Part shown: positions 27,075 through 36,387 of the stretch, one piece after another | Position numbering within the stretch: position 1 is the first letter of the stretch | Layout of the letters: every line of letters begins with the position of its first letter | Assembly (NCBI RefSeq): GCF_030732225.1 | Contig: NZ_CP132230.1 | Span: forward strand, 1,020,001 to 1,084,000 | Length of the DNA: 64,000 nucleotides | Reading direction: 5' to 3' | Source: Streptococcus iniae | GTDB taxonomy: Bacteria; Bacillota; Bacilli; Lactobacillales; Streptococcaceae | Translations under genes and position numbers: made by a program | The notes under the pieces: model-generated | Database searches by the model: none | What the model saw: the letters and a program-made list of their open reading frames with translations, nothing else | Told to the model about the DNA's origin: nothing

Positions 27075-28145
27075 TTATAATTTATCTAAAGCATTTTTTT
27101 GTTCATCGTTAACAATATGAGTATAGAGATCGGTAACTTGTGTTGAGGCATGTCCGAGTTGATGACTAACTAATACTTGTGATTTTGTGGCATCATATAA
27201 CCTAGTTGCTAGAGTATGCCGTAATTTATGGGGAGTTACCCGAATTTTAAAATCTTGTGAGTATTTTGCCACCATTTTTTCGATACTTGAAGCGTCAATT
27301 CGATTAGGGACACCTCGATATTCTGTTAAAAAGAAAGCGACATCTTGCTTTTCAGCCTTATAGCGATTTTTGCGGATGCTTAAATAATTTTCCAAATATG
27401 GCTTAGCAAAACTAGCTACGTTAACAGAATCGCGTTTACCACCTTTACGTGTGACTTCGATGACCATCATTTTAAGATTAACATCTTTTAAATCAAGATT
27501 AACAGCTTCTGACAGACGCACACCAGAGGCTAGAAGTAGTGCAATGATAGCTAAATCACGTTCTTTATTTTTTCGGAAAGATGATTTAGCACGATTTGAG
27601 AGACTATTTTCATAGTCACAGTCAACATATTCCAAAAATTCCATGGTTTCATCACCTAAAAAGAGTTTTTGTTTGATGTTTTCAGCTCTGGAAGCTAAGG
27701 TTTCTTTTTTCTTTTTAGTGGACACCTTTTTCATGACGTTCCGGTAGAAATAGGGTTCGCCATTGTCATTTTCGACTTCCTCGGTTAAATAGTTATATAA
27801 ACTGGATAAGGCTGACAAGGTGCGGTTAATGGTGGTCTGTGATAAGCCTTCTTTTGTTGAATAAGTATTAAGAGAGGGTCTTTCACGTAAATAGAGAACA
27901 AAAGCCTCCATATCTTTTTTAGTGAGATTTTCTAAAGTGTCAAGATCGATATTAGCAATCTTTCTAGCTTTTGAAATGTCAGAATCGATTAACCAATCAA
28001 AAAAGCGTTTATATTCTTTAAGGTATTCGTATAAGGTTGTAAAACTATAAGGGACAGATAATTTAGATTGGTAATATTCTAATACAAACCAGGGCATTAT
28101 CTGTTTGTATTGGTCAATTTTTTCAAGTAGCAATTCACGTCTCAT
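27075..28145 (-). CDS. xerS: Chromosome dimer resolution recombinase XerS
   Basis: The 356-residue tyrosine recombinase is the single Xer enzyme of streptococci and lactococci and resolves chromosome dimers at difSL. The catalytic set is complete: Arg210 ([12 protein letters not shown]), His306 and Arg309 (HKLRH), His332 (LGHAS) and Tyr341 (DLYTH). The N-terminal core-binding domain covers residues 1-150. I chose ATG 28145 ([14 protein letters not shown]) because it gives the family length and AAAGGAAC lies upstream; a longer frame to 28229 would run into the dif site. The dif site is 75 bp upstream, the usual arrangement. Confidence 0.96.
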
Positions 28146-28220
28146 CTTGTTAATAAGTTCCTTTTGAATCTTTTTGTTTGTGTAACTTGTTCTTAATAGT
28201 AGTATATCACACCCTTGTAT

Positions 28221-28252
28221 ATTTTTCAAGAAAATTACAGTTTTTCGGAAAG
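28221..28252. other. Chromosome dimer resolution site difSL
   Basis: The sequence ATTTTTCAAGAAAATTACAG followed by TTTTTCGGAAAG agrees almost fully with the streptococcal/lactococcal difSL (arms TTTTCAAGAAAA and TTTTTCGGAAAG). It lies just upstream of xerS. The right arm is repeated inverted as CTTTCCGAAAAA at 28265-28276, making a 12-bp inverted pair with a 12-base spacer (28241-28276). Confidence 0.88.
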
Positions 28253-28791
28253 TTTCCTAGACATCTTTCCGAAAAATAACAAAAATTTTTTTAAAGTACA
28301 TTTTCGTTAAATATTTCAATTATACATTTTTATTGATTTTACTATTCAAAAACATGGCTTATGGATTGGAATCAATGATTTTTTGGTAAAAGCCATATTC
28401 AATCACTGTAAAGTGACAGAATACTTCAGCACATTCAATTAGAATAGGGTTTAGTTCTTCCCTAGGGGATAAACCAACTGAAAATCTAAACCTATCATCT
28501 CCAGCAGATTTATCTGTCCAAAAAGCTTGATGAAAAGCGGTTTCTGATAAATGAACATAACCTGATGATTTATTATAAATTTCTTCAATCTCAGGATAAT
28601 ACTCTGAAATTCTTTTCTTAAGATGAAAATCAGTCATCATTTTATTTTGATTATCTTTCATTTTCCTGATTGTTTTACCGCTTAAAGTCTCTTTAATAAA
28701 TGTTCTTCTATCCTCTGATATAAAGGCAGCGAATGATGTTATCCTTAAATCTTAGAGTCACTATTGTATAATTTAGACAAAGGACAAAAAC

Positions 28792-29052
28792 ATGAAAAAA
28801 CGCTACTCAAAAGAATTTAAAGAAACCCTTATCGCCTTCTATCATTCTGGTCAATCCGTCACCCAGCTGTCTAAAGAATACGACGTGGCCCCTGCAACAA
28901 TTTATAAATGGATAGACCTCTACTCTAAATCTAATGAAAGCTCCGTCTCTAAAGCTGATTTTCTAGAATTAAAAAGACAACTGGCTAAAGTTAAGGAAGA
29001 ACGAGACATCTTAAAAAAAGTATTGACCATATTCGCCGAGAAAAAGAAGTGA
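28792..29052 (+). CDS. IS3-family transposase OrfA (copy 1)
   Basis: The 86-residue protein has a helix-turn-helix (KRYSKEFKETLIAFYHSGQSVTQLSKEYDVAPATIYKW) and a leucine-zipper-like coil (LELKRQLAKVKEERDILKKVL). It binds the element ends. Its end overlaps OrfB by four bases (GTGA). Confidence 0.92.
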   Translation: MKKRYSKEFKETLIAFYHSGQSVTQLSKEYDVAPATIYKWIDLYSKSNESSVSKADFLELKRQLAKVKEERDILKKVLTIFAEKKK

Positions 29053-29903
29053 GTGCTGCGGATATGGCTCAAACCATACAAACTTTAGCACTCAATGTCA
29101 GACTAAGCTGTCAACTCCTTGATGTTCCTGAATCAAGTTATTATGAACGGATTAACCGACATCCATCTAAAACTCAATTAAGGAGACAATACCTGTCACT
29201 CAAAATTTCTCAACTCTTCAATGCTAACCGAGGAATCTATGGTGCTCCTAAAATTCATCATCTTCTATTTAAACAAGGGGAAAAAGTCGGGTTAAAACTG
29301 GTACAGAAGCTAATGAAGCAACTTCAACTCAAGTCTGTAGTCATTAAGAAATTTAAGCCTGGATACTCACTAAGTGATCACATCAATCGAAAAAATCTCA
29401 TACAGACTGAACCTACAAAGAAAAATAAGGTTTGGTCAACCGACATTACTTATATTCCTACTCAACAAGGATGGGCTTATCTCTCAACCATTATGGATCG
29501 TTATACTAAAAAAGTCATTGCTTGGGATTTGGGCAAGCGAATGACTGTAGAATTAGTGCAAAGAACTTTAAATAAGGCCATTAAATCACAAGACTATCCA
29601 GAAGCTGTTATTCTTCATTCTGACCAAGGAAGCCAGTATACGAGTCTAGAGTATGAAGAGTTGCTTAAGTATTATGGGATGACTCACTCTTTCAGTCGAA
29701 GGGGATACCCTTATCATAATGCCAGTCTTGAATCTTGGCATGGACATTTAAAAAGAGAGTGGGTGTATCAATTTAAATATAAGAACTTTGAAGAAGCCTA
29801 TCAGAGTATTTTCTGGTACATCGAAGCCTTTTATAATTCAAAACGAATCCATCAAAGTTTAGGGTATCTTACACCTAATCAATTTGAAAAGGTAAGTGCT
29901 TAA
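29049..29903 (+). CDS. IS3-family transposase OrfB (copy 1)
   Basis: The 284-residue DDE integrase-type catalytic subunit has the triad Asp in WSTDITYIP, Asp in HSDQGSQYTS and Glu in NASLESWHGHLKRE. It starts with GTG 29049 by coupling to OrfA, or is made as an OrfAB fusion by frameshifting in the AAAAAGAAG stretch. Complete. Confidence 0.92.
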   Translation: MSAADMAQTIQTLALNVRLSCQLLDVPESSYYERINRHPSKTQLRRQYLSLKISQLFNANRGIYGAPKIHHLLFKQGEKVGLKLVQKLMKQLQLKSVVIKKFKPGYSLSDHINRKNLIQTEPTKKNKVWSTDITYIPTQQGWAYLSTIMDRYTKKVIAWDLGKRMTVELVQRTLNKAIKSQDYPEAVILHSDQGSQYTSLEYEELLKYYGMTHSFSRRGYPYHNASLESWHGHLKREWVYQFKYKNFEEAYQSIFWYIEAFYNSKRIHQSLGYLTPNQFEKVSA

Positions 29904-30225
29904 AATAAATAGATTAAAATTCTACGTTTGTTACTCTAAAAACTTGACTTAACCTCAGAAGACTCTCATAAGGTTATCAAGCTGTGTTCGCACTAAAATT
30001 CCTGCACAGGCCAGATTTCTCGTTCTTAATAATTCTATTATTCCATCAATAAATTGAACGCGTCTGTTAAGCGCGGAAATAAAAAACATATCATCTTCAG
30101 TAAAATTTTCACCAACAATACCTGCAGTTATACTCTTTGATTCTTCTCGATAACCTCTTAATTTATTGAAATAAGTCTCTATTTCATTGAAATATTCATC
30201 ATTTGTCATTACATTTCCTCCTGAA

Positions 30226-31731
30226 CTATCTTTCTAACATAGATTCAATCAGTGGTTCTATTCCTTCGTCAATCAAGCTATCTATCATGTGTTGTGCGCT
30301 AAACCGACCAGCTGTATAAGCTACATATTTTAAAATCCTTGCAGCAACTTCATTAACAGTAAATGGGAAATCCCCTCTTAAAACACGATAAGAAATGGTG
30401 GCAAAAGGGTCTGCATCTTCGAACTGCTTCAAATATTGCTCGTAGTTAGAATGAATCATCTGAATGATATAATTTGCATGTGTATCATCTAACCTCATAA
30501 AGATCATTAAGCATTCAATAAAAACATTACTTTTTTTGATACAAGCTTGACATAGCTCTTTTGCTGACATTTCATAAATATAGTTTTCTATATCATCATC
30601 AAAAACACCTTGGTCAATTTTTTCCCATATCGTTTTCTTGAAAGTCTCGTCGCTTCTAATGCTCAACCATGAATTTAACGCATTCAACATTTCAGTAGCG
30701 TCTTGATACCTATAATCAGGTTCTAAATTCGTGGCTTTTTCACTAACAGAACGAAGCGAATGAGAAAAAATATAAGGATTTTTTGTCATAACAAAATTGA
30801 TAATACGTCCAAGTGAATATACATCACTCCGTTTATCTGCGTCTTTTAAAAGCGTTAGTTGCTCTGGTGCACAATAAAAGAGTTGACCAAAGGAAGATGT
30901 GTCCATTGTTTGATGAGATGTCAAAGTATTTAGGTTTTTTCCTAAACCAAAATCAGCAATCTTAATTATCCCATTCACAAAGAAAACATTGGTCGGACTT
31001 AAGTCTCTATGCAGAACATCTCTTTGATGGACAAGAGACATAGTATGAAGTATTTGCCGCAATATATTGAACTTAGAATCCTCTGTGAGCTCACTTTCTT
31101 CAATGTAGTCAGCCAATGTATAATCGGCTTTTTCCATTGTGTATGAACAATTACTACTATCAAAATCAAATACTCGGATAATACTCCCAATATCTGAACA
31201 AGATTTAGTTATTTCGTACTCTCTCTTTAAACGACTTCTCAACGATTGGCGTCTGATAGATTTCTCGTTCAGTTTTTTTAACACCAATCCTGTAGATTTT
31301 TGGAAATAAATGTCAGCGAAGCCTCCCTTTCCAATCTCAACTAAATCTAAATCAATTTCCACTAAATAAAACTCATTTCCTCTTTTTGAGAGTTTTAAAT
31401 AATAAATGGAACAAATTTTATCTAACTCATTTATTATTTTCTGCTGATGCTCTAAAGCATCCACTTCATTTATCTGACGCTCCGTTAAAAGATATTGTTT
31501 GCTGAGTATAAGATTGAAAAATGAAGTGATAATGCCTCTAGAGGAAAAGTCCAACAGCTTGTCATTAACATACATCCACCTTGTAGGAAAACCTTGCCCA
31601 TAACTATCTTGAGCATTGAAATGTGTATTGAAAAATGATACTAGCTGGGGTCCTGATTTATAAGTAAACAGCTCCATCTCATCCCCACAAAATATTGTTG
31701 CTAGTCTTTTGTAAAATTCTGGATTGACCAA
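30226..31731 (-). CDS. AbiJ-like N-terminal region fused to a Hanks-type Ser/Thr protein kinase
   Basis: The 501-residue protein has three parts. Residues 1-115 contain FCGDEMELFTYKSGPQLVSFF and YGQGFPTRW (GFPTRW 47-52), which resemble the AbiJ-type N-terminal domain of phage-defence effectors. Residues 128-360 are a complete kinase: glycine loop GKGGFADIYF (134-143), Lys152, helix-C Glu171, catalytic HRDLSPTN (241-248, Asp243), DFG (260-262), APE (288-290) and SDVYSLG (302-308). Residues 360-501 are helical with no assigned domain. There is no membrane segment or PASTA repeat, so it is unlike the cell-wall kinase PknB. It starts with TTG 31731 behind AAGGAGG. It is the middle gene of a three-gene cassette whose outer genes are both IS-broken. 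Confidence 0.85.
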   Translation of the reverse strand: MVNPEFYKRLATIFCGDEMELFTYKSGPQLVSFFNTHFNAQDSYGQGFPTRWMYVNDKLLDFSSRGIITSFFNLILSKQYLLTERQINEVDALEHQQKIINELDKICSIYYLKLSKRGNEFYLVEIDLDLVEIGKGGFADIYFQKSTGLVLKKLNEKSIRRQSLRSRLKREYEITKSCSDIGSIIRVFDFDSSNCSYTMEKADYTLADYIEESELTEDSKFNILRQILHTMSLVHQRDVLHRDLSPTNVFFVNGIIKIADFGLGKNLNTLTSHQTMDTSSFGQLFYCAPEQLTLLKDADKRSDVYSLGRIINFVMTKNPYIFSHSLRSVSEKATNLEPDYRYQDATEMLNALNSWLSIRSDETFKKTIWEKIDQGVFDDDIENYIYEMSAKELCQACIKKSNVFIECLMIFMRLDDTHANYIIQMIHSNYEQYLKQFEDADPFATISYRVLRGDFPFTVNEVAARILKYVAYTAGRFSAQHMIDSLIDEGIEPLIESMLER

Positions 31732-32575
31732 TAGCCGTTCCTCCTTATAGATGGTAATTCCTTAATTTAATAAATGTAGGCAGTGACACACAATCTATTT
31801 TCTCAATTAAACATAAGGTGTCGTCCTGAATAGAAAAAATATAAAATCTTTCTTGAAATAAAGTTACAAAATAGGTCTCAAACTCTTTCATTTTTAAACT
31901 CCGATAAGCAAACAGTGAATTAAAATCATAGTTTAGTGCACTAATAATTATATCGTCTAAATTTTCTGTTTCAAGACAATCTTCCAATTCAAATGTGTAA
32001 GGAAAAAATAGCATTATATTCTTCCTTTTTTCAAGTATGTCCAACACAGTAATAATGTCTTTTTCAATACCATGCTTTCTGCTGTTTTGAAAGTCTTCTT
32101 TTAATTGGATCAATTCTGCCACATTTCTTGTTCGAAATGCTACATGAATGTGAGTGGCTTTAATTTCGCCAGTCTTCTTTTTACTCTCAGTAATAGCTGT
32201 TATACCGTTCCCAAAGTTACTAATACCATGAGAAAACAAACTGCTAGCTTGTAGTCTAGTACTAGAGGATAATAACTTAAAGTCTATTTCGTAATCTTTT
32301 GATATGGCATCACACTGACCATGACTTTCGTCCACTGGTTTAGAAAAGTAAGATTTGCCTTTTTCAATAAAATGAGACGATTTATTAAGTAACTCTAGTA
32401 AGTAGTTTTCATAATTACAATCTGCTTCTCCAATAACAAATGAGGTTAAGTCAAGTTTTTAGAGTAACAAACGTAGAATTTTAATCTATTTATTTTAAGC
32501 ACTTACCTTTTCAAATTGATTAGGTGTAAGTGAAAAGGCAACAGTTTTCTGTACAAGATTTATAAAGTGTTTTTA

Positions 32576-33355
32576 TTAGACCGTTAATCTTTTGGTCATG
32601 GGCGTCTGATAGTTTAGACTACCATGAATGCGGTGGTGATTCCACCAGTGGACATAGTCCTTGGTTTTAAGGGCCAATTCTTCTAGCGTCTGGAAAGTTT
32701 CCTGGTGGACAAATTCTATTTTGAAAGCGCGATAGGTGCTCTCAGCTACGGCATTGTCGTAAGGACAACCTGCTTGACTAAGTGAGCGTTTGATATCAAA
32801 GGCTGTAAGCACATCATCTATCAAGGCATTGTCGAACTCTTTTCCTCTGTCCGAATGGAATATCTTGACCTTGGTCAGAGCGTAAGGAATACTCTGAATC
32901 GCTTGTTTCACCAGCTCTGCTGTCTTGTGCCAACCAACCGATAAGCCAATGATTTCACGGTTGTAGAGGTCCATAATGAAACAAACATAAGCCCAGCCAT
33001 TACCGACACGAACGTAGGTTAAGTCTGTCACTAAAGCTTTTAGAGGCTTTTCTTGATGAAATTGTCTGGCTAAGTGATTAGGAATAGCTACCTCATTCTT
33101 ACCTTTTGAATGTGGCTTGAAGACTGCTTTCTGATAAACAGATACTAAGTTGAGTCTGTGCATGATGCGACGAATCCGACGACGAGACCGCTGGATACCT
33201 TCATTTTCCAAACATTTCTTGATTTTCCTAGCACCGTATCTGGCCTTACTTTCGAGAAAAATAGCTTTGATATTTTCTTCAAGTTCCGCTTCAGAGACTG
33301 GTTTAACAGTCTTGTAGTAATAGCTAGAACGAGGAATGTTCAACCAACGACACAT
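32576..33355 (-). CDS. IS981-like transposase OrfB (copy A)
   Basis: The 259-residue DDE catalytic subunit has the triad in LVTDLTYV, FHSDRGKEF and NAVAESTYRAFK. The frame is open upstream of this ATG toward OrfA (KREVITANKDKYSISA), so the active protein is probably an OrfAB frameshift fusion. Identical to the copy at 35225-36004. Confidence 0.9.
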   Translation of the reverse strand: MCRWLNIPRSSYYYKTVKPVSEAELEENIKAIFLESKARYGARKIKKCLENEGIQRSRRRIRRIMHRLNLVSVYQKAVFKPHSKGKNEVAIPNHLARQFHQEKPLKALVTDLTYVRVGNGWAYVCFIMDLYNREIIGLSVGWHKTAELVKQAIQSIPYALTKVKIFHSDRGKEFDNALIDDVLTAFDIKRSLSQAGCPYDNAVAESTYRAFKIEFVHQETFQTLEELALKTKDYVHWWNHHRIHGSLNYQTPMTKRLTV

Positions 33356-33390
33356 AGCTGAAATGCTATATTTATCCTTATTAGCAGTGA

Positions 33391-33684
33391 TTACTTCTCT
33401 TTTCGTGCCATAATCACTGCCGCTTGCTTTAGGATATCTAGCTGCATTTCGAGTTCTTTATTGCGTTTTCGGAGTTCAATCAGTTCACGCTGTTCATCTG
33501 TCAGATTATCAATCGTTTTAAATGACCCAGTTGTTTTTGCCTGACGAACCCACTTATCGAAGGTTGATGGGGTTAACTCATATTCTTTGATAAGCTCACT
33601 TCGTTTCATCCCTGCATGGTGAAGGTCAACGATTTGTTGCTTAAAGTCATCAGTGAAGTGGCGACGTATTTTTCTAGACATCAT
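33391..33684 (-). CDS. IS981-like transposase OrfA (copy A)
   Basis: The 97-residue helix-turn-helix protein (FTDDFKQQIVDLHHAGMKRSELIKEYELTPSTFDKW) has a C-terminal coil (LRKRNKELEMQLDILKQ). It is identical to the copy at 34896-35189. Confidence 0.92.
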   Translation of the reverse strand: MMSRKIRRHFTDDFKQQIVDLHHAGMKRSELIKEYELTPSTFDKWVRQAKTTGSFKTIDNLTDEQRELIELRKRNKELEMQLDILKQAAVIMARKEK

Positions 33685-33749
33685 ATTCTCCTATTTTCTT
33701 TAGTGTAGAACACTTTATAAATTCTGTCTAGTTTAGTGTAACCGATTCA

Positions 33750-34571
33750 AAGATACCCTAAACTTTGATGGATTCGTTTTGAATTATAAAAGGCTTCGAT
33801 GTACCAGAAAATACTCTGATAGGCTTCTTCAAAGTTCTTATATTTAAATTGATACACCCACTCTCTTTTTAAATGTCCATGCCAAGATTCAAGACTGGCA
33901 TTATGATAAGGGTATCCCCTTCGACTGAAAGAGTGAGTCATCCCATAATACTTAAGCAACTCTTCATACTCTAGACTCGTATACTGGCTTCCTTGGTCAG
34001 AATGAAGAATAACAGCTTCTGGATAGTCTTGTGATTTAATGGCCTTATTTAAAGTTCTTTGCACTAATTCTACAGTCATTCGCTTGCCCAAATCCCAAGC
34101 AATGACTTTTTTAGTATAACGATCCATAATGGTTGAGAGATAAGCCCATCCTTGTTGAGTAGGAATATAAGTAATGTCGGTTGACCAAACCTTATTTTTC
34201 TTTGTAGGTTCAGTCTGTATGAGATTTTTTCGATTGATGTGATCACTTAGTGAGTATCCAGGCTTAAATTTCTTAATGACTACAGACTTGAGTTGAAGTT
34301 GCTTCATTAGCTTCTGTACCAGTTTTAACCCGACTTTTTCCCCTTGTTTAAATAGAAGATGATGAATTTTAGGAGCACCATAGATTCCTCGGTTAGCATT
34401 GAAGAGTTGAGAAATTTTGAGTGACAGGTATTGTCTCCTTAATTGAGTTTTAGATGGATGTCGGTTAATCCGTTCATAATAACTTGATTCAGGAACATCA
34501 AGGAGTTGACAGCTTAGTCTGACATTGAGTGCTAAAGTTTGTATGGTTTGAGCCATATCCGCAGCACTCAC
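33750..34571 (-). pseudogene. IS3-family OrfB of copy 2, interrupted near its 3' end
   Basis: This matches 29049-29903 residue for residue up to HQSLGYL, where copy A of the IS981-like element enters. The missing last ten codons (TPNQFEKVSA) and the element end are at 32441-32530. The DDE triad is intact, but the C-terminus now differs. Confidence 0.9.
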
Positions 34572-34828
34572 TTCTTTTTCTCGGCGAATATGGTCAATAC
34601 TTTTTTTAAGATGTCTCGTTCTTCCTTAACTTTAGCCAGTTGTCTTTTTAATTCTAGAAAATCAGCTTTAGAGACGGAGCTTTCATTAGATTTAGAGTAG
34701 AGGTCTATCCATTTATAAATTGTTGCAGGGGCCACGTCGTATTCTTTAGACAGCTGGGTGACGGATTGACCAGAATGATAGAAGGCGATAAGGGTTTCTT
34801 TAAATTCTTTTGAGTAGCGTTTTTTCAT
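34568..34828 (-). CDS. IS3-family transposase OrfA (copy 2)
   Basis: This is identical to the 86-residue OrfA of copy 1. The IS981-like copy B is inserted just upstream of its ATG (the start codon lies in the CATGT duplication at 34826-34830), so it has lost its own leader. Confidence 0.9.
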   Translation of the reverse strand: MKKRYSKEFKETLIAFYHSGQSVTQLSKEYDVAPATIYKWIDLYSKSNESSVSKADFLELKRQLAKVKEERDILKKVLTIFAEKKK

Positions 34829-34895
34829 GTTGAATCGGTTACACTAAACTAGACAGAATTTATAAAGTGTTCTACACTAAAGAAAATAGGAGAAT

Positions 34896-35189
34896 ATGAT
34901 GTCTAGAAAAATACGTCGCCACTTCACTGATGACTTTAAGCAACAAATCGTTGACCTTCACCATGCAGGGATGAAACGAAGTGAGCTTATCAAAGAATAT
35001 GAGTTAACCCCATCAACCTTCGATAAGTGGGTTCGTCAGGCAAAAACAACTGGGTCATTTAAAACGATTGATAATCTGACAGATGAACAGCGTGAACTGA
35101 TTGAACTCCGAAAACGCAATAAAGAACTCGAAATGCAGCTAGATATCCTAAAGCAAGCGGCAGTGATTATGGCACGAAAAGAGAAGTAA
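34896..35189 (+). CDS. IS981-like transposase OrfA (copy B)
   Basis: The 97-residue helix-turn-helix subunit is identical to copy A. TAGGAGA precedes the ATG. Confidence 0.92.
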   Translation: MMSRKIRRHFTDDFKQQIVDLHHAGMKRSELIKEYELTPSTFDKWVRQAKTTGSFKTIDNLTDEQRELIELRKRNKELEMQLDILKQAAVIMARKEK

Positions 35190-35224
35190 TCACTGCTAAT
35201 AAGGATAAATATAGCATTTCAGCT

Positions 35225-36004
35225 ATGTGTCGTTGGTTGAACATTCCTCGTTCTAGCTATTACTACAAGACTGTTAAACCAGTCTCTGAAGCGGAACTTG
35301 AAGAAAATATCAAAGCTATTTTTCTCGAAAGTAAGGCCAGATACGGTGCTAGGAAAATCAAGAAATGTTTGGAAAATGAAGGTATCCAGCGGTCTCGTCG
35401 TCGGATTCGTCGCATCATGCACAGACTCAACTTAGTATCTGTTTATCAGAAAGCAGTCTTCAAGCCACATTCAAAAGGTAAGAATGAGGTAGCTATTCCT
35501 AATCACTTAGCCAGACAATTTCATCAAGAAAAGCCTCTAAAAGCTTTAGTGACAGACTTAACCTACGTTCGTGTCGGTAATGGCTGGGCTTATGTTTGTT
35601 TCATTATGGACCTCTACAACCGTGAAATCATTGGCTTATCGGTTGGTTGGCACAAGACAGCAGAGCTGGTGAAACAAGCGATTCAGAGTATTCCTTACGC
35701 TCTGACCAAGGTCAAGATATTCCATTCGGACAGAGGAAAAGAGTTCGACAATGCCTTGATAGATGATGTGCTTACAGCCTTTGATATCAAACGCTCACTT
35801 AGTCAAGCAGGTTGTCCTTACGACAATGCCGTAGCTGAGAGCACCTATCGCGCTTTCAAAATAGAATTTGTCCACCAGGAAACTTTCCAGACGCTAGAAG
35901 AATTGGCCCTTAAAACCAAGGACTATGTCCACTGGTGGAATCACCACCGCATTCATGGTAGTCTAAACTATCAGACGCCCATGACCAAAAGATTAACGGT
36001 CTAA
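35225..36004 (+). CDS. IS981-like transposase OrfB (copy B)
   Basis: The 259-residue DDE subunit is identical to copy A. The frame is open upstream to the end of OrfA, which supports synthesis by ribosomal frameshifting near GCACGAAAAGAGAAG (35170-35184). Confidence 0.9.
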   Translation: MCRWLNIPRSSYYYKTVKPVSEAELEENIKAIFLESKARYGARKIKKCLENEGIQRSRRRIRRIMHRLNLVSVYQKAVFKPHSKGKNEVAIPNHLARQFHQEKPLKALVTDLTYVRVGNGWAYVCFIMDLYNREIIGLSVGWHKTAELVKQAIQSIPYALTKVKIFHSDRGKEFDNALIDDVLTAFDIKRSLSQAGCPYDNAVAESTYRAFKIEFVHQETFQTLEELALKTKDYVHWWNHHRIHGSLNYQTPMTKRLTV

Positions 36005-36210
36005 TAAAAACACTTTATAAATCTTGTACAGAAAACTGTTGCCTTTTCACATGTTTTTGTCCTTTGTCTAAATTATACAATAGTGACTCTAAGATTTAAG
36101 GATAACATCAAAAATCCTTAATGATGGTAGCAGGAGGTAATAGTTTAAATCTTATTCGAGAATCAATATTTGGGTTTAAATCATCACTCATCAAAAATCT
36201 CCTTCAAATA

Positions 36211-36253
36211 ATTATACCACCAACGTTAAAAAAGAATGTAACCATTAGGTTAC
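36211..36253 (-). promoter_or_regulatory. Promoter and palindrome before the kinase cassette
   Basis: On the minus strand an extended -10 TGG-TATAAT (hexamer 36211-36216) lies 20 bases before the first-gene ATG at 36191. There is no good -35. A palindrome GTAACC-ATTA-GGTTAC (36238-36253) occupies the -35 to -50 region and may be an operator. Confidence 0.5.
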
Positions 36254-36387
36254 AGCAGCCTACTGACTAATATGTTCAATTTAATTATTTAAAAATATAC
36301 AATTGACCTTACTTCCTCTCCTCTATTTTCTACCTCATTTTGTACAATTGAATTTCTACCATAACTACAATATCCTCATCTAATTCT

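What the first reader, a model, noticed from the sequence alone, without database searches (positions are those of the whole stretch)
28359..36253. Candidate undescribed three-gene kinase cassette beside dif
Without its ISs this region is one minus-strand operon: a 257-residue unknown protein with a possible nuclease motif, an AbiJ-like/Hanks kinase fusion and a 207-residue helical protein. The gaps are 13 and 16 bp, both later genes have strong ribosome sites, and a promoter with palindrome precedes the first. The mix of a phage-defence-type N-terminal region, a soluble kinase and a helical partner is what abortive-infection systems look like. The position next to dif, a known hot spot for acquired DNA, fits. 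I know of no named system with this set.
Basis: partly seen in the sequence, partly recalled or inferred. Interest (0 to 1): 0.85.

Follow-up and report, generated by a model that had tools for sequence, protein, structure and literature searches.

The report
IS-broken Stk2 phage-defence kinase operon
The kinase in this streptococcal operon belongs to Stk2, an anti-phage suicide kinase already known from staphylococci; what looks new is that it travels with two uncharacterised partner genes, a likely nuclease and a helical protein, both broken by mobile elements in this genome but whole in other streptococci.

Summary
Minus-strand genes of 257, 501 and 207 codons lie beside xerS/difSL. Two are split by insertion sequences (IS); the kinase frame is open. 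The order and the 13- and 16-bp gaps recur in whole copies in 7 other streptococcal genomes, and the pairs tested show purifying selection, so the operon is real. But the kinase is not undescribed: it matches the PADLOC Stk2 model over its full length (844 bits). Stk2 is the phage-triggered abortive-infection kinase of staphylococci. New are the partners. Gene 1 conserves an E...D...(D/E)xK signature, suggesting a PD-(D/E)XK nuclease; relatives also sit in clostridial type I restriction operons next to hsdR and once beside CBASS genes. Gene 3 is helical with weak DUF5677/HEPN-like resemblance. Both look dispensable: Stk2 also occurs alone or only with gene 1, so a strict three-part machine is unproven. 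Most likely: Stk2 abortive infection with two accessory, possibly effector, proteins, partly inactivated in this strain. A new variant of a known kind, of moderate interest.

The parts
36111..36191 (-). gene 1, first piece (residues 1-27 of 257)
   Evidence: tblastn with whole homologues P0001/P0005
31745..32443 (-). gene 1, second piece (residues about 26-257 plus stop); carries the equivalents of Glu37, Asp70, Asp79 and Lys81
   Evidence: tblastn; alignment A1
30226..31731 (-). Stk2-family Ser/Thr kinase, 501 codons, intact frame; N-terminal domain about 1-128, kinase domain about 131-400, HRD Asp243, DFG Asp260
   Evidence: PADLOC Stk2 844 bits, model positions 1-499 of 500; Pfam Pkinase; motif positions. 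The reference used lacks the first codon, so their residue numbers are one lower
29955..30209 (-). gene 3, first piece (residues 1-84 of 207)
   Evidence: tblastn with P0065/P0048; identical to P0058 1-84
28359..28733 (-). gene 3, second piece (residues 84-207 plus stop)
   Evidence: tblastn; identical to the last 124 residues of P0058
28734..29957 (+). IS3-type element A (ORFs 28792-29052 and 29049-29903) splitting gene 3
   Evidence: self-comparison of the region; rve/HTH_21 domains in the ORF of its second copy
32441..36110 (-). second copy of IS element A splitting gene 1, itself cut into three by two copies of element B
   Evidence: self-comparison
32530..33750 (-). IS3-type element B, copy 1 (ORFs 33391-33684 and 32576-33355)
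   Evidence: 100% identical inverted copy of 34830-36050; rve domain
34830..36050 (+). IS3-type element B, copy 2 (ORFs 34896-35189 and 35225-36004)
36192..36262 (-). promoter region of the operon: hairpin TGTAACC-TAAT-GGTTACA (36254-36237), T-rich run, TATAAT box (36216-36211) and a purine-rich ribosome site
   Evidence: hairpin fold; upstream alignment of 10 copies, TATAAT in the same column in 9 (not L036)
28221..28251 (-). difSL recombination site next to xerS
   Evidence: half-sites as printed in PMC5357621 read in the sequence
27075..28229 (-). xerS (context, not part of the operon)
   Evidence: NF003462, 558 bits

Best explanation
This is an Stk2-type abortive-infection operon with two accessory genes, acquired beside difSL and later damaged by IS elements. 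SHOWN: the kinase is an Stk2-family member with Hanks catalytic motifs; the three-gene order and gaps are conserved, and the whole copies compared show purifying selection; genes 1 and 3 are split here. INFERRED: a phage product is sensed through the N-terminal domain, which is shared with an AbiJ/Abi_C protein; the kinase autophosphorylates and phosphorylates host proteins, so the cell stops growing or dies before phage release, as reported for staphylococcal Stk2. INFERRED, weaker: gene 1 (PD-(D/E)XK-type nuclease) and gene 3 (helical, DUF5677/HEPN-like) are extra effectors or regulators in the same response, perhaps switched on by phosphorylation, so the operon delivers a layered response. 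In this genome at most the kinase can work, and only if an IS-borne or internal promoter replaces the original one, now about 4.5 kb away. That the operon was acquired is inferred from its patchy distribution; no empty site was found.
For: PADLOC Stk2 844 bits over model positions 1-499 of 500, next family PD-T4-6 at 114; Pkinase 2.3e-29; KK 152-153, HRD D243, DFG D260. N-terminal domain shared with Abi_C protein P0172. Whole trio in 7 of 8 other gene-3-bearing genomes; gaps 13/16 bp read directly in 6; in G299 the 16-bp gap is read and the 13-bp gap follows from the coordinates. dN/dS for L016 v L018: gene 1 0.15, kinase 0.17, gene 3 0.32; for L067 v L080: gene 1 0.30, kinase 0.20; window kinase v L016 0.15. 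Gene 1: Glu37, Asp70, Lys81 invariant, Asp79 in 90% or more of 34 aligned sequences. Defence neighbours in some copies. Stk2 biology from reviews, passages seen: PMC6532042, PMC12926258.
Confidence: 0.72

Rival explanations
1. The kinase is a stand-alone Stk2, and genes 1 and 3 are independent defence genes that share its promoter only because streptococcal defence islands are packed tightly. (These rivals are not mutually exclusive.)
For: Stk2 relatives without gene 1 or gene 3 within the stretch examined: G138, G059, G115 and two Lactococcus plasmids. Gene 1 sits in type I RM operons and beside CBASS genes without Stk2. Gene 3 stands without the others in G023, G536 and, behind a truncated hsdM, G472.
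Against: Fixed order and gaps of 13 and 16 bp in the 7 whole trios. The gene 1-kinase pair keeps the 13-bp gap at about 60% gene 1 identity in L067 and in G233/L080.
Confidence: 0.4
2. Gene 1 is a guard effector that plugs into whatever defence operon is at hand. In Clostridia it watches type I restriction, as PrrC does from inside the EcoprrI operon; in streptococci it answers to Stk2.
For: 6 of 24 gene 1 loci lie in type I RM surroundings with hsdR next (5) or next but one (1). One lies before a SMODS nucleotidyltransferase and a Cap15 receptor-domain gene. PrrC is embedded in a type IC RM operon and released on T4 infection (PMC3874165, passage seen).
Against: Position is only suggestive: gene 1 could be a small extra nuclease of the RM system. 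13 of the 24 loci show neither hsdR, Stk2 nor CBASS beside it (several on short contigs), nor does G498. No activity is known.
Confidence: 0.25
3. The whole locus is dead: IS insertions removed the promoter and two genes, so in this strain nothing of it works.
For: Both partner genes are split, and the original promoter lies beyond a 3.7-kb IS nest.
Against: The kinase frame is intact, and Stk2 is described as acting as a kinase on its own (PMC6532042); outward IS promoters are common (recalled).
Confidence: 0.45

Closest known systems
Stk2 (staphylococcal abortive-infection Ser/Thr kinase, Depardieu et al. 2016; paper not held, known here through passages of reviews PMC6532042 and PMC12926258)
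   Same: Full-length profile match including N- and C-terminal parts; soluble Hanks kinase in a defence setting.
   Different: Here it is the middle gene of a three-gene operon. The partners match no PADLOC-DB 2.0.0 (2023) model. Searches of the held library listed no paper that I could tell treats these partners; I saw Stk2 passages of four papers and otherwise listings only.
AbiJ / Abi_C (PF14355) proteins
   Same: P0172 joins the same N-terminal domain (36% identity) to Abi_C.
   Different: The window kinase carries a kinase domain instead of Abi_C, and no AbiJ_NTD Pfam model hits it.
PrrC in the EcoprrI type IC operon (PMC3874165, passage seen)
   Same: Gene 1 relatives lie inside hsd operons next to hsdR.
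   Different: Gene 1 is a predicted PD-(D/E)XK protein of about 257 aa; no hsd gene adjoins it in this window.
KKP kinase-kinase-phosphatase (PMC11341870, start of abstract seen) and PD-T4-6 defence kinases (PADLOC)
   Same: Ser/Thr kinases used against phage.
   Different: No second kinase or phosphatase ORF was recognised in the operon; PD-T4-6 scores 114 bits against 844 for Stk2.

Membership tests
Stk2 | Full-length profile match | tested here: met
   844.3 bits, model positions 1-499 of 500
Stk2 | Complete Hanks-kinase catalytic motifs | tested here: met
   Pkinase 103 bits; KK 152-153 (one of them the VAIK-type Lys), HRD D243, DFG D260
Stk2 | Phage-triggered growth arrest or death | not testable with these tools
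   needs plating and infection assays
AbiJ (Abi_C type) | C-terminal Abi_C domain | tested here: not met
   no PF14355 hit in the kinase or in whole gene 1 and gene 3 homologues
AbiJ (Abi_C type) | N-terminal domain found in AbiJ-type proteins | tested here: met
   one Abi_C protein of 25 hits, P0172, shares it at E 4.7e-10; AbiJ_NTD3 hits P0172 only weakly (0.024) and the kinase not at all
PD-(D/E)XK nuclease (gene 1) | Conserved E...D...(D/E)xK acidic-lysine signature on an alpha-beta core | tested here: met
   E37, D70, K81 invariant and D79 in 90% or more of 34 sequences, chosen as near-full-length from the 47 hits; helix 36-46 and strand 77-82 in the model, mean pLDDT 90.5
PD-(D/E)XK nuclease (gene 1) | Fold match to a solved nuclease | tested here: inconclusive
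HEPN RNase (gene 3) | R-x4-6-H catalytic motif | tested here: not met
   invariant H144 has no conserved Arg 4-6 residues before it; the conserved motif is R74-x-Q-x-D-N-x-x-R82 ... G141-x-x-H144-x-S146 (42 of 100 hits aligned)
HEPN RNase (gene 3) | HEPN helical fold | tested here: inconclusive
DUF5677 (gene 3) | Pfam PF18928 above curated cut-off | tested here: inconclusive
   distant relatives P0141 23.3 and P0113 17.2 bits, cut-off 27.1; no hit for the L016 gene 3 homologue

The most novel reading that the evidence does not exclude
Gene 1 is the nuclease effector of a plug-in defence module: the same protein family is wired to type I restriction in Clostridia, to CBASS signalling in S. merionis and to an AbiJ-sensor kinase in streptococci. 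In the streptococcal version the Stk2 kinase, set off through its AbiJ-type sensor, switches on gene 1 and gene 3 by phosphorylation, making a kinase-gated nuclease system rather than a kinase that kills only by itself.
Probability: 0.2. Interest if true: 0.75.

Novelty: new variant of a known kind. Interest (0 to 1): 0.47.

Why it matters
In the passages I saw, Stk2 is treated as a kinase acting by itself. If its streptococcal form carries two co-transcribed partners, defence surveys miss two proteins, and the question of how Stk2 is triggered and kills becomes testable in whole natural operons. The domain shared between an AbiJ/Abi_C protein and Stk2 suggests one sensor serving two effectors. 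Gene 1 in hsd operons and beside CBASS genes would be a portable effector family; of the libraries searched, only PHROGs holds it, without a function (phrog_4170).

Tried and rejected
AbiJ_NTD models on the kinase N-terminus: none at E <= 10; the link came from the N-terminus-only protein search. Foldseek for both partners: nothing at E <= 0.001; VIA-align weak or tied with unrelated helical bundles; fold families not listed there are not excluded. Profile comparison of gene 1 with a PDDEXK_4 protein: nothing. Empty-site search with the neighbouring 410-codon gene: 1 of 41 genomes, only its own, passed E <= 1e-80. Local GC skew in the window gave no clean terminus switch. Palindrome as operator: rejected, not conserved and terminator-like. 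Gene 3 in viral contigs: 4 pattern matches, none confirmed. Gene 1 in plasmid and phage records: none at E <= 1e-5. Gene 3 in plasmids: 4 records, all under 60% identity and under 80% coverage, in Proteobacteria and Bacteroidota, no kinase annotated in the stretches shown. A gene 1 profile hit in G138 (L019) turned out to be a 15.8-bit chance match to an IS transposase. The fourth gene and the divergent gene of the mitis-group loci: no significant match in the window.

Full report
WHAT IS IN THE WINDOW. The window is bases 1,020,001-1,084,000 of a single 2.18-Mb chromosome; its relatives are streptococci, the species is not established. Read on the minus strand, gene 1 (257 codons in whole relatives), a kinase of 501 codons and gene 3 (207 codons) follow one another. 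Gene 1 is split after residue 27 and gene 3 after residue 84; the kinase is open. The splits are insertion sequences: element A (28734-29957) in gene 3, and a second copy of A in gene 1 that is itself cut by two inverted copies of element B. An end of element A occurs at 10 places in the genome, the two here included. A database protein, P0058 (207 aa, whole, listed on 75 contigs, source not shown), is identical to both window pieces of gene 3, so whole gene 3 copies of this lineage exist. For gene 1, the 47 proteins were compared with the window's second piece: the nearest is a 196-residue fragment like the window's own (P0013, 99.5%); the nearest whole one is P0005 of S. equi subsp. zooepidemicus, 84% over residues 26-257.

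THE TRIO IS REAL. A scan of 295 genomes of the family with the gene 3 profile found 9 with a match at E <= 1e-10, the window's own included. Of the 8 others, 7 have gene 1, Stk2 and gene 3 in that order: G049, G091, G128, G232, G241, G271, and G299 (kinase and gene 3, gene 1). The exception, G023, has gene 3 without the other two in the 18 kb examined. Four of the seven match the named records L031-L034 (S. pseudopneumoniae, S. oralis subsp. dentisani, S. infantis, S. mitis; 34 or 35 of 35 probes), so I count them once. The gaps are 13 and 16 bp in the six read directly and, by coordinates, in G299. Between L016 and L018, dN/dS is 0.15, 0.17 and 0.32 for genes 1, 2 and 3; between L067 and L080, 0.30 and 0.20 for gene 1 and kinase.

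THE KINASE IS STK2. PADLOC's Stk2 model scores 844 bits end to end, against 114 for the next family. The reviews I saw in passages say that Stk2, characterised in S. aureus and S. epidermidis, is activated by a phage protein, phosphorylates host proteins of core functions and kills the cell (PMC6532042), and that escape phages often carry pacK mutations (PMC12926258). The original paper is not held. A survey of 263 S. thermophilus strains lists Stk2 with a count of 2 and says it is found in a few strains (PMC12322248, passages). In the genus scan 9 of 147 genomes had a match at E <= 1e-60, the own genome included. Of the 8 others, 3 carry the trio, 1 has a full-length kinase without partners (G138, 70%), 2 have fragments with an internal stop (G106, G143), and 2 have a 43%-identical kinase with another N-terminus and no gene 1 or 3 in the 16 kb examined (G059, G115).

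THE N-TERMINUS. The first 128 residues have no Pfam match at E <= 10. A protein search restricted to them returned 25 proteins: 23 with precomputed kinase domains, one relaxase chimaera (P0165), and P0172, 276 aa, E 4.7e-10, with Abi_C at the C-terminus; PADLOC calls that part AbiJ. The alignment shows YRSGPQLVSFFN...DSYGQGFPTRW in P0172 against YKSGPQLVSFFN...DSYGQGFPTRW in the window.

GENE 1. In 34 near-full-length relatives (of 47 hits; shorter and some near-identical ones dropped) Glu37, Asp70 and Lys81 are invariant and Asp79 nearly so, the pattern of PD-(D/E)XK nucleases (recalled). The model is good (pLDDT 90.5), but no solved structure matches convincingly. PHROGs holds the family without a function (phrog_4170). 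In the named-genome scan 24 loci encode it. Four have Stk2 and gene 3 beside it. Six lie in type I restriction surroundings, with hsdR next (L038, L040, L041, L050, L052) or next but one (L037). One (L035, S. merionis) precedes a SMODS nucleotidyltransferase and a Cap15 receptor-domain gene. The other 13 have none of these beside it; several are on short contigs, L047 has an HsdS-like hit about 1.7 kb away and L036 a SIR2_2 protein next to it, and most of their neighbours were not family-scanned. In the genus scan 11 of 197 genomes carry gene 1, own included; of the 10 others, 5 have Stk2 next to it and 5 do not, one of these being a 47-residue match only. The pair gene 1-Stk2 without gene 3 occurs behind serine recombinases in the prophage-like contig L067 and in G233 (L080), again with 13 bp between. 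A phylum sample found gene 1 in 2 of 398 genomes, own included; the other (G498) has no partner nearby.

HOW IT PROBABLY WORKS. Shown: operon structure, Stk2 membership, conserved signatures, IS damage. Inferred: phage sensing through the N-terminal domain, autophosphorylation, phosphorylation of host proteins, abortive infection. Weaker inference: genes 1 and 3 are further effectors or controls. In this strain only the kinase could act, and its original promoter lies about 4.5 kb away behind the IS nest.

NOVELTY. The kinase is known. The partners have no PADLOC or NCBIfam match, and my literature searches (listings, plus Stk2 passages of PMC12322248, PMC6532042, PMC12926258 and PMC12813430) showed no description of them; most subscription papers are not held. 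I rate it a new variant of a known kind.

Noticed in passing
L020 (own genome, 1,875,778-1,876,890, outside the window): The same genome holds a second Stk2-family kinase (43% identical over the kinase part, PADLOC 617 bits) with an unrelated N-terminus and no gene 1 or gene 3 in the 17 kb examined.
   Followed up: partly
L016 10443-11132; L018 10706-11395; L031 10036-10725; L033 10038-10727: In several whole trios a fourth gene of 229 codons follows; in L016 it has a DRGH motif reminiscent (recalled) of DNA/RNA non-specific endonucleases. No library matched the L016 copy, and it is not in the window.
   Followed up: partly
L016 6371-7126 (-); L033 5991-6785 (-): A divergent gene of about 250-264 codons with a CPxC motif stands upstream of the trio in mitis-group genomes; not in the window.
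   Followed up: no
L038, L040, L041, L037, L050, L052: Gene 1 relatives sit inside clostridial type I restriction operons, mostly just before hsdR.
   Followed up: partly
L065, L080, L036, L086; and L017, L021, L032, L034, L058: Carriers of Stk2, gene 1 or gene 3 recur next to an rlmD-like 23S rRNA methyltransferase gene (first four) or next to rpmF (the others; L017 and L034 are the same genome); gene names are recalled from the sequence. They look like insertion hot spots.
   Followed up: no
L066/L067 (IMG/VR contigs): Gene 1 + Stk2 ride behind endolysin-like and serine recombinase genes in prophage-like contigs; gene 1 there is nearly identical to P0014 of S. agalactiae. In L066 the kinase is split into 290 and 207 codons.
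   Followed up: partly
P0165: A 631-aa protein fuses the Stk2 N-terminal domain to the C-terminal part of a relaxase, probably a deletion chimaera.
   Followed up: no
L022 5695-8575: A PDDEXK_4 (PDC-S26) gene, a small ORF and an Stk2-like kinase with a Cauli_VI/RNase H1 N-terminal domain lie together, another nuclease-kinase neighbourhood.
   Followed up: no
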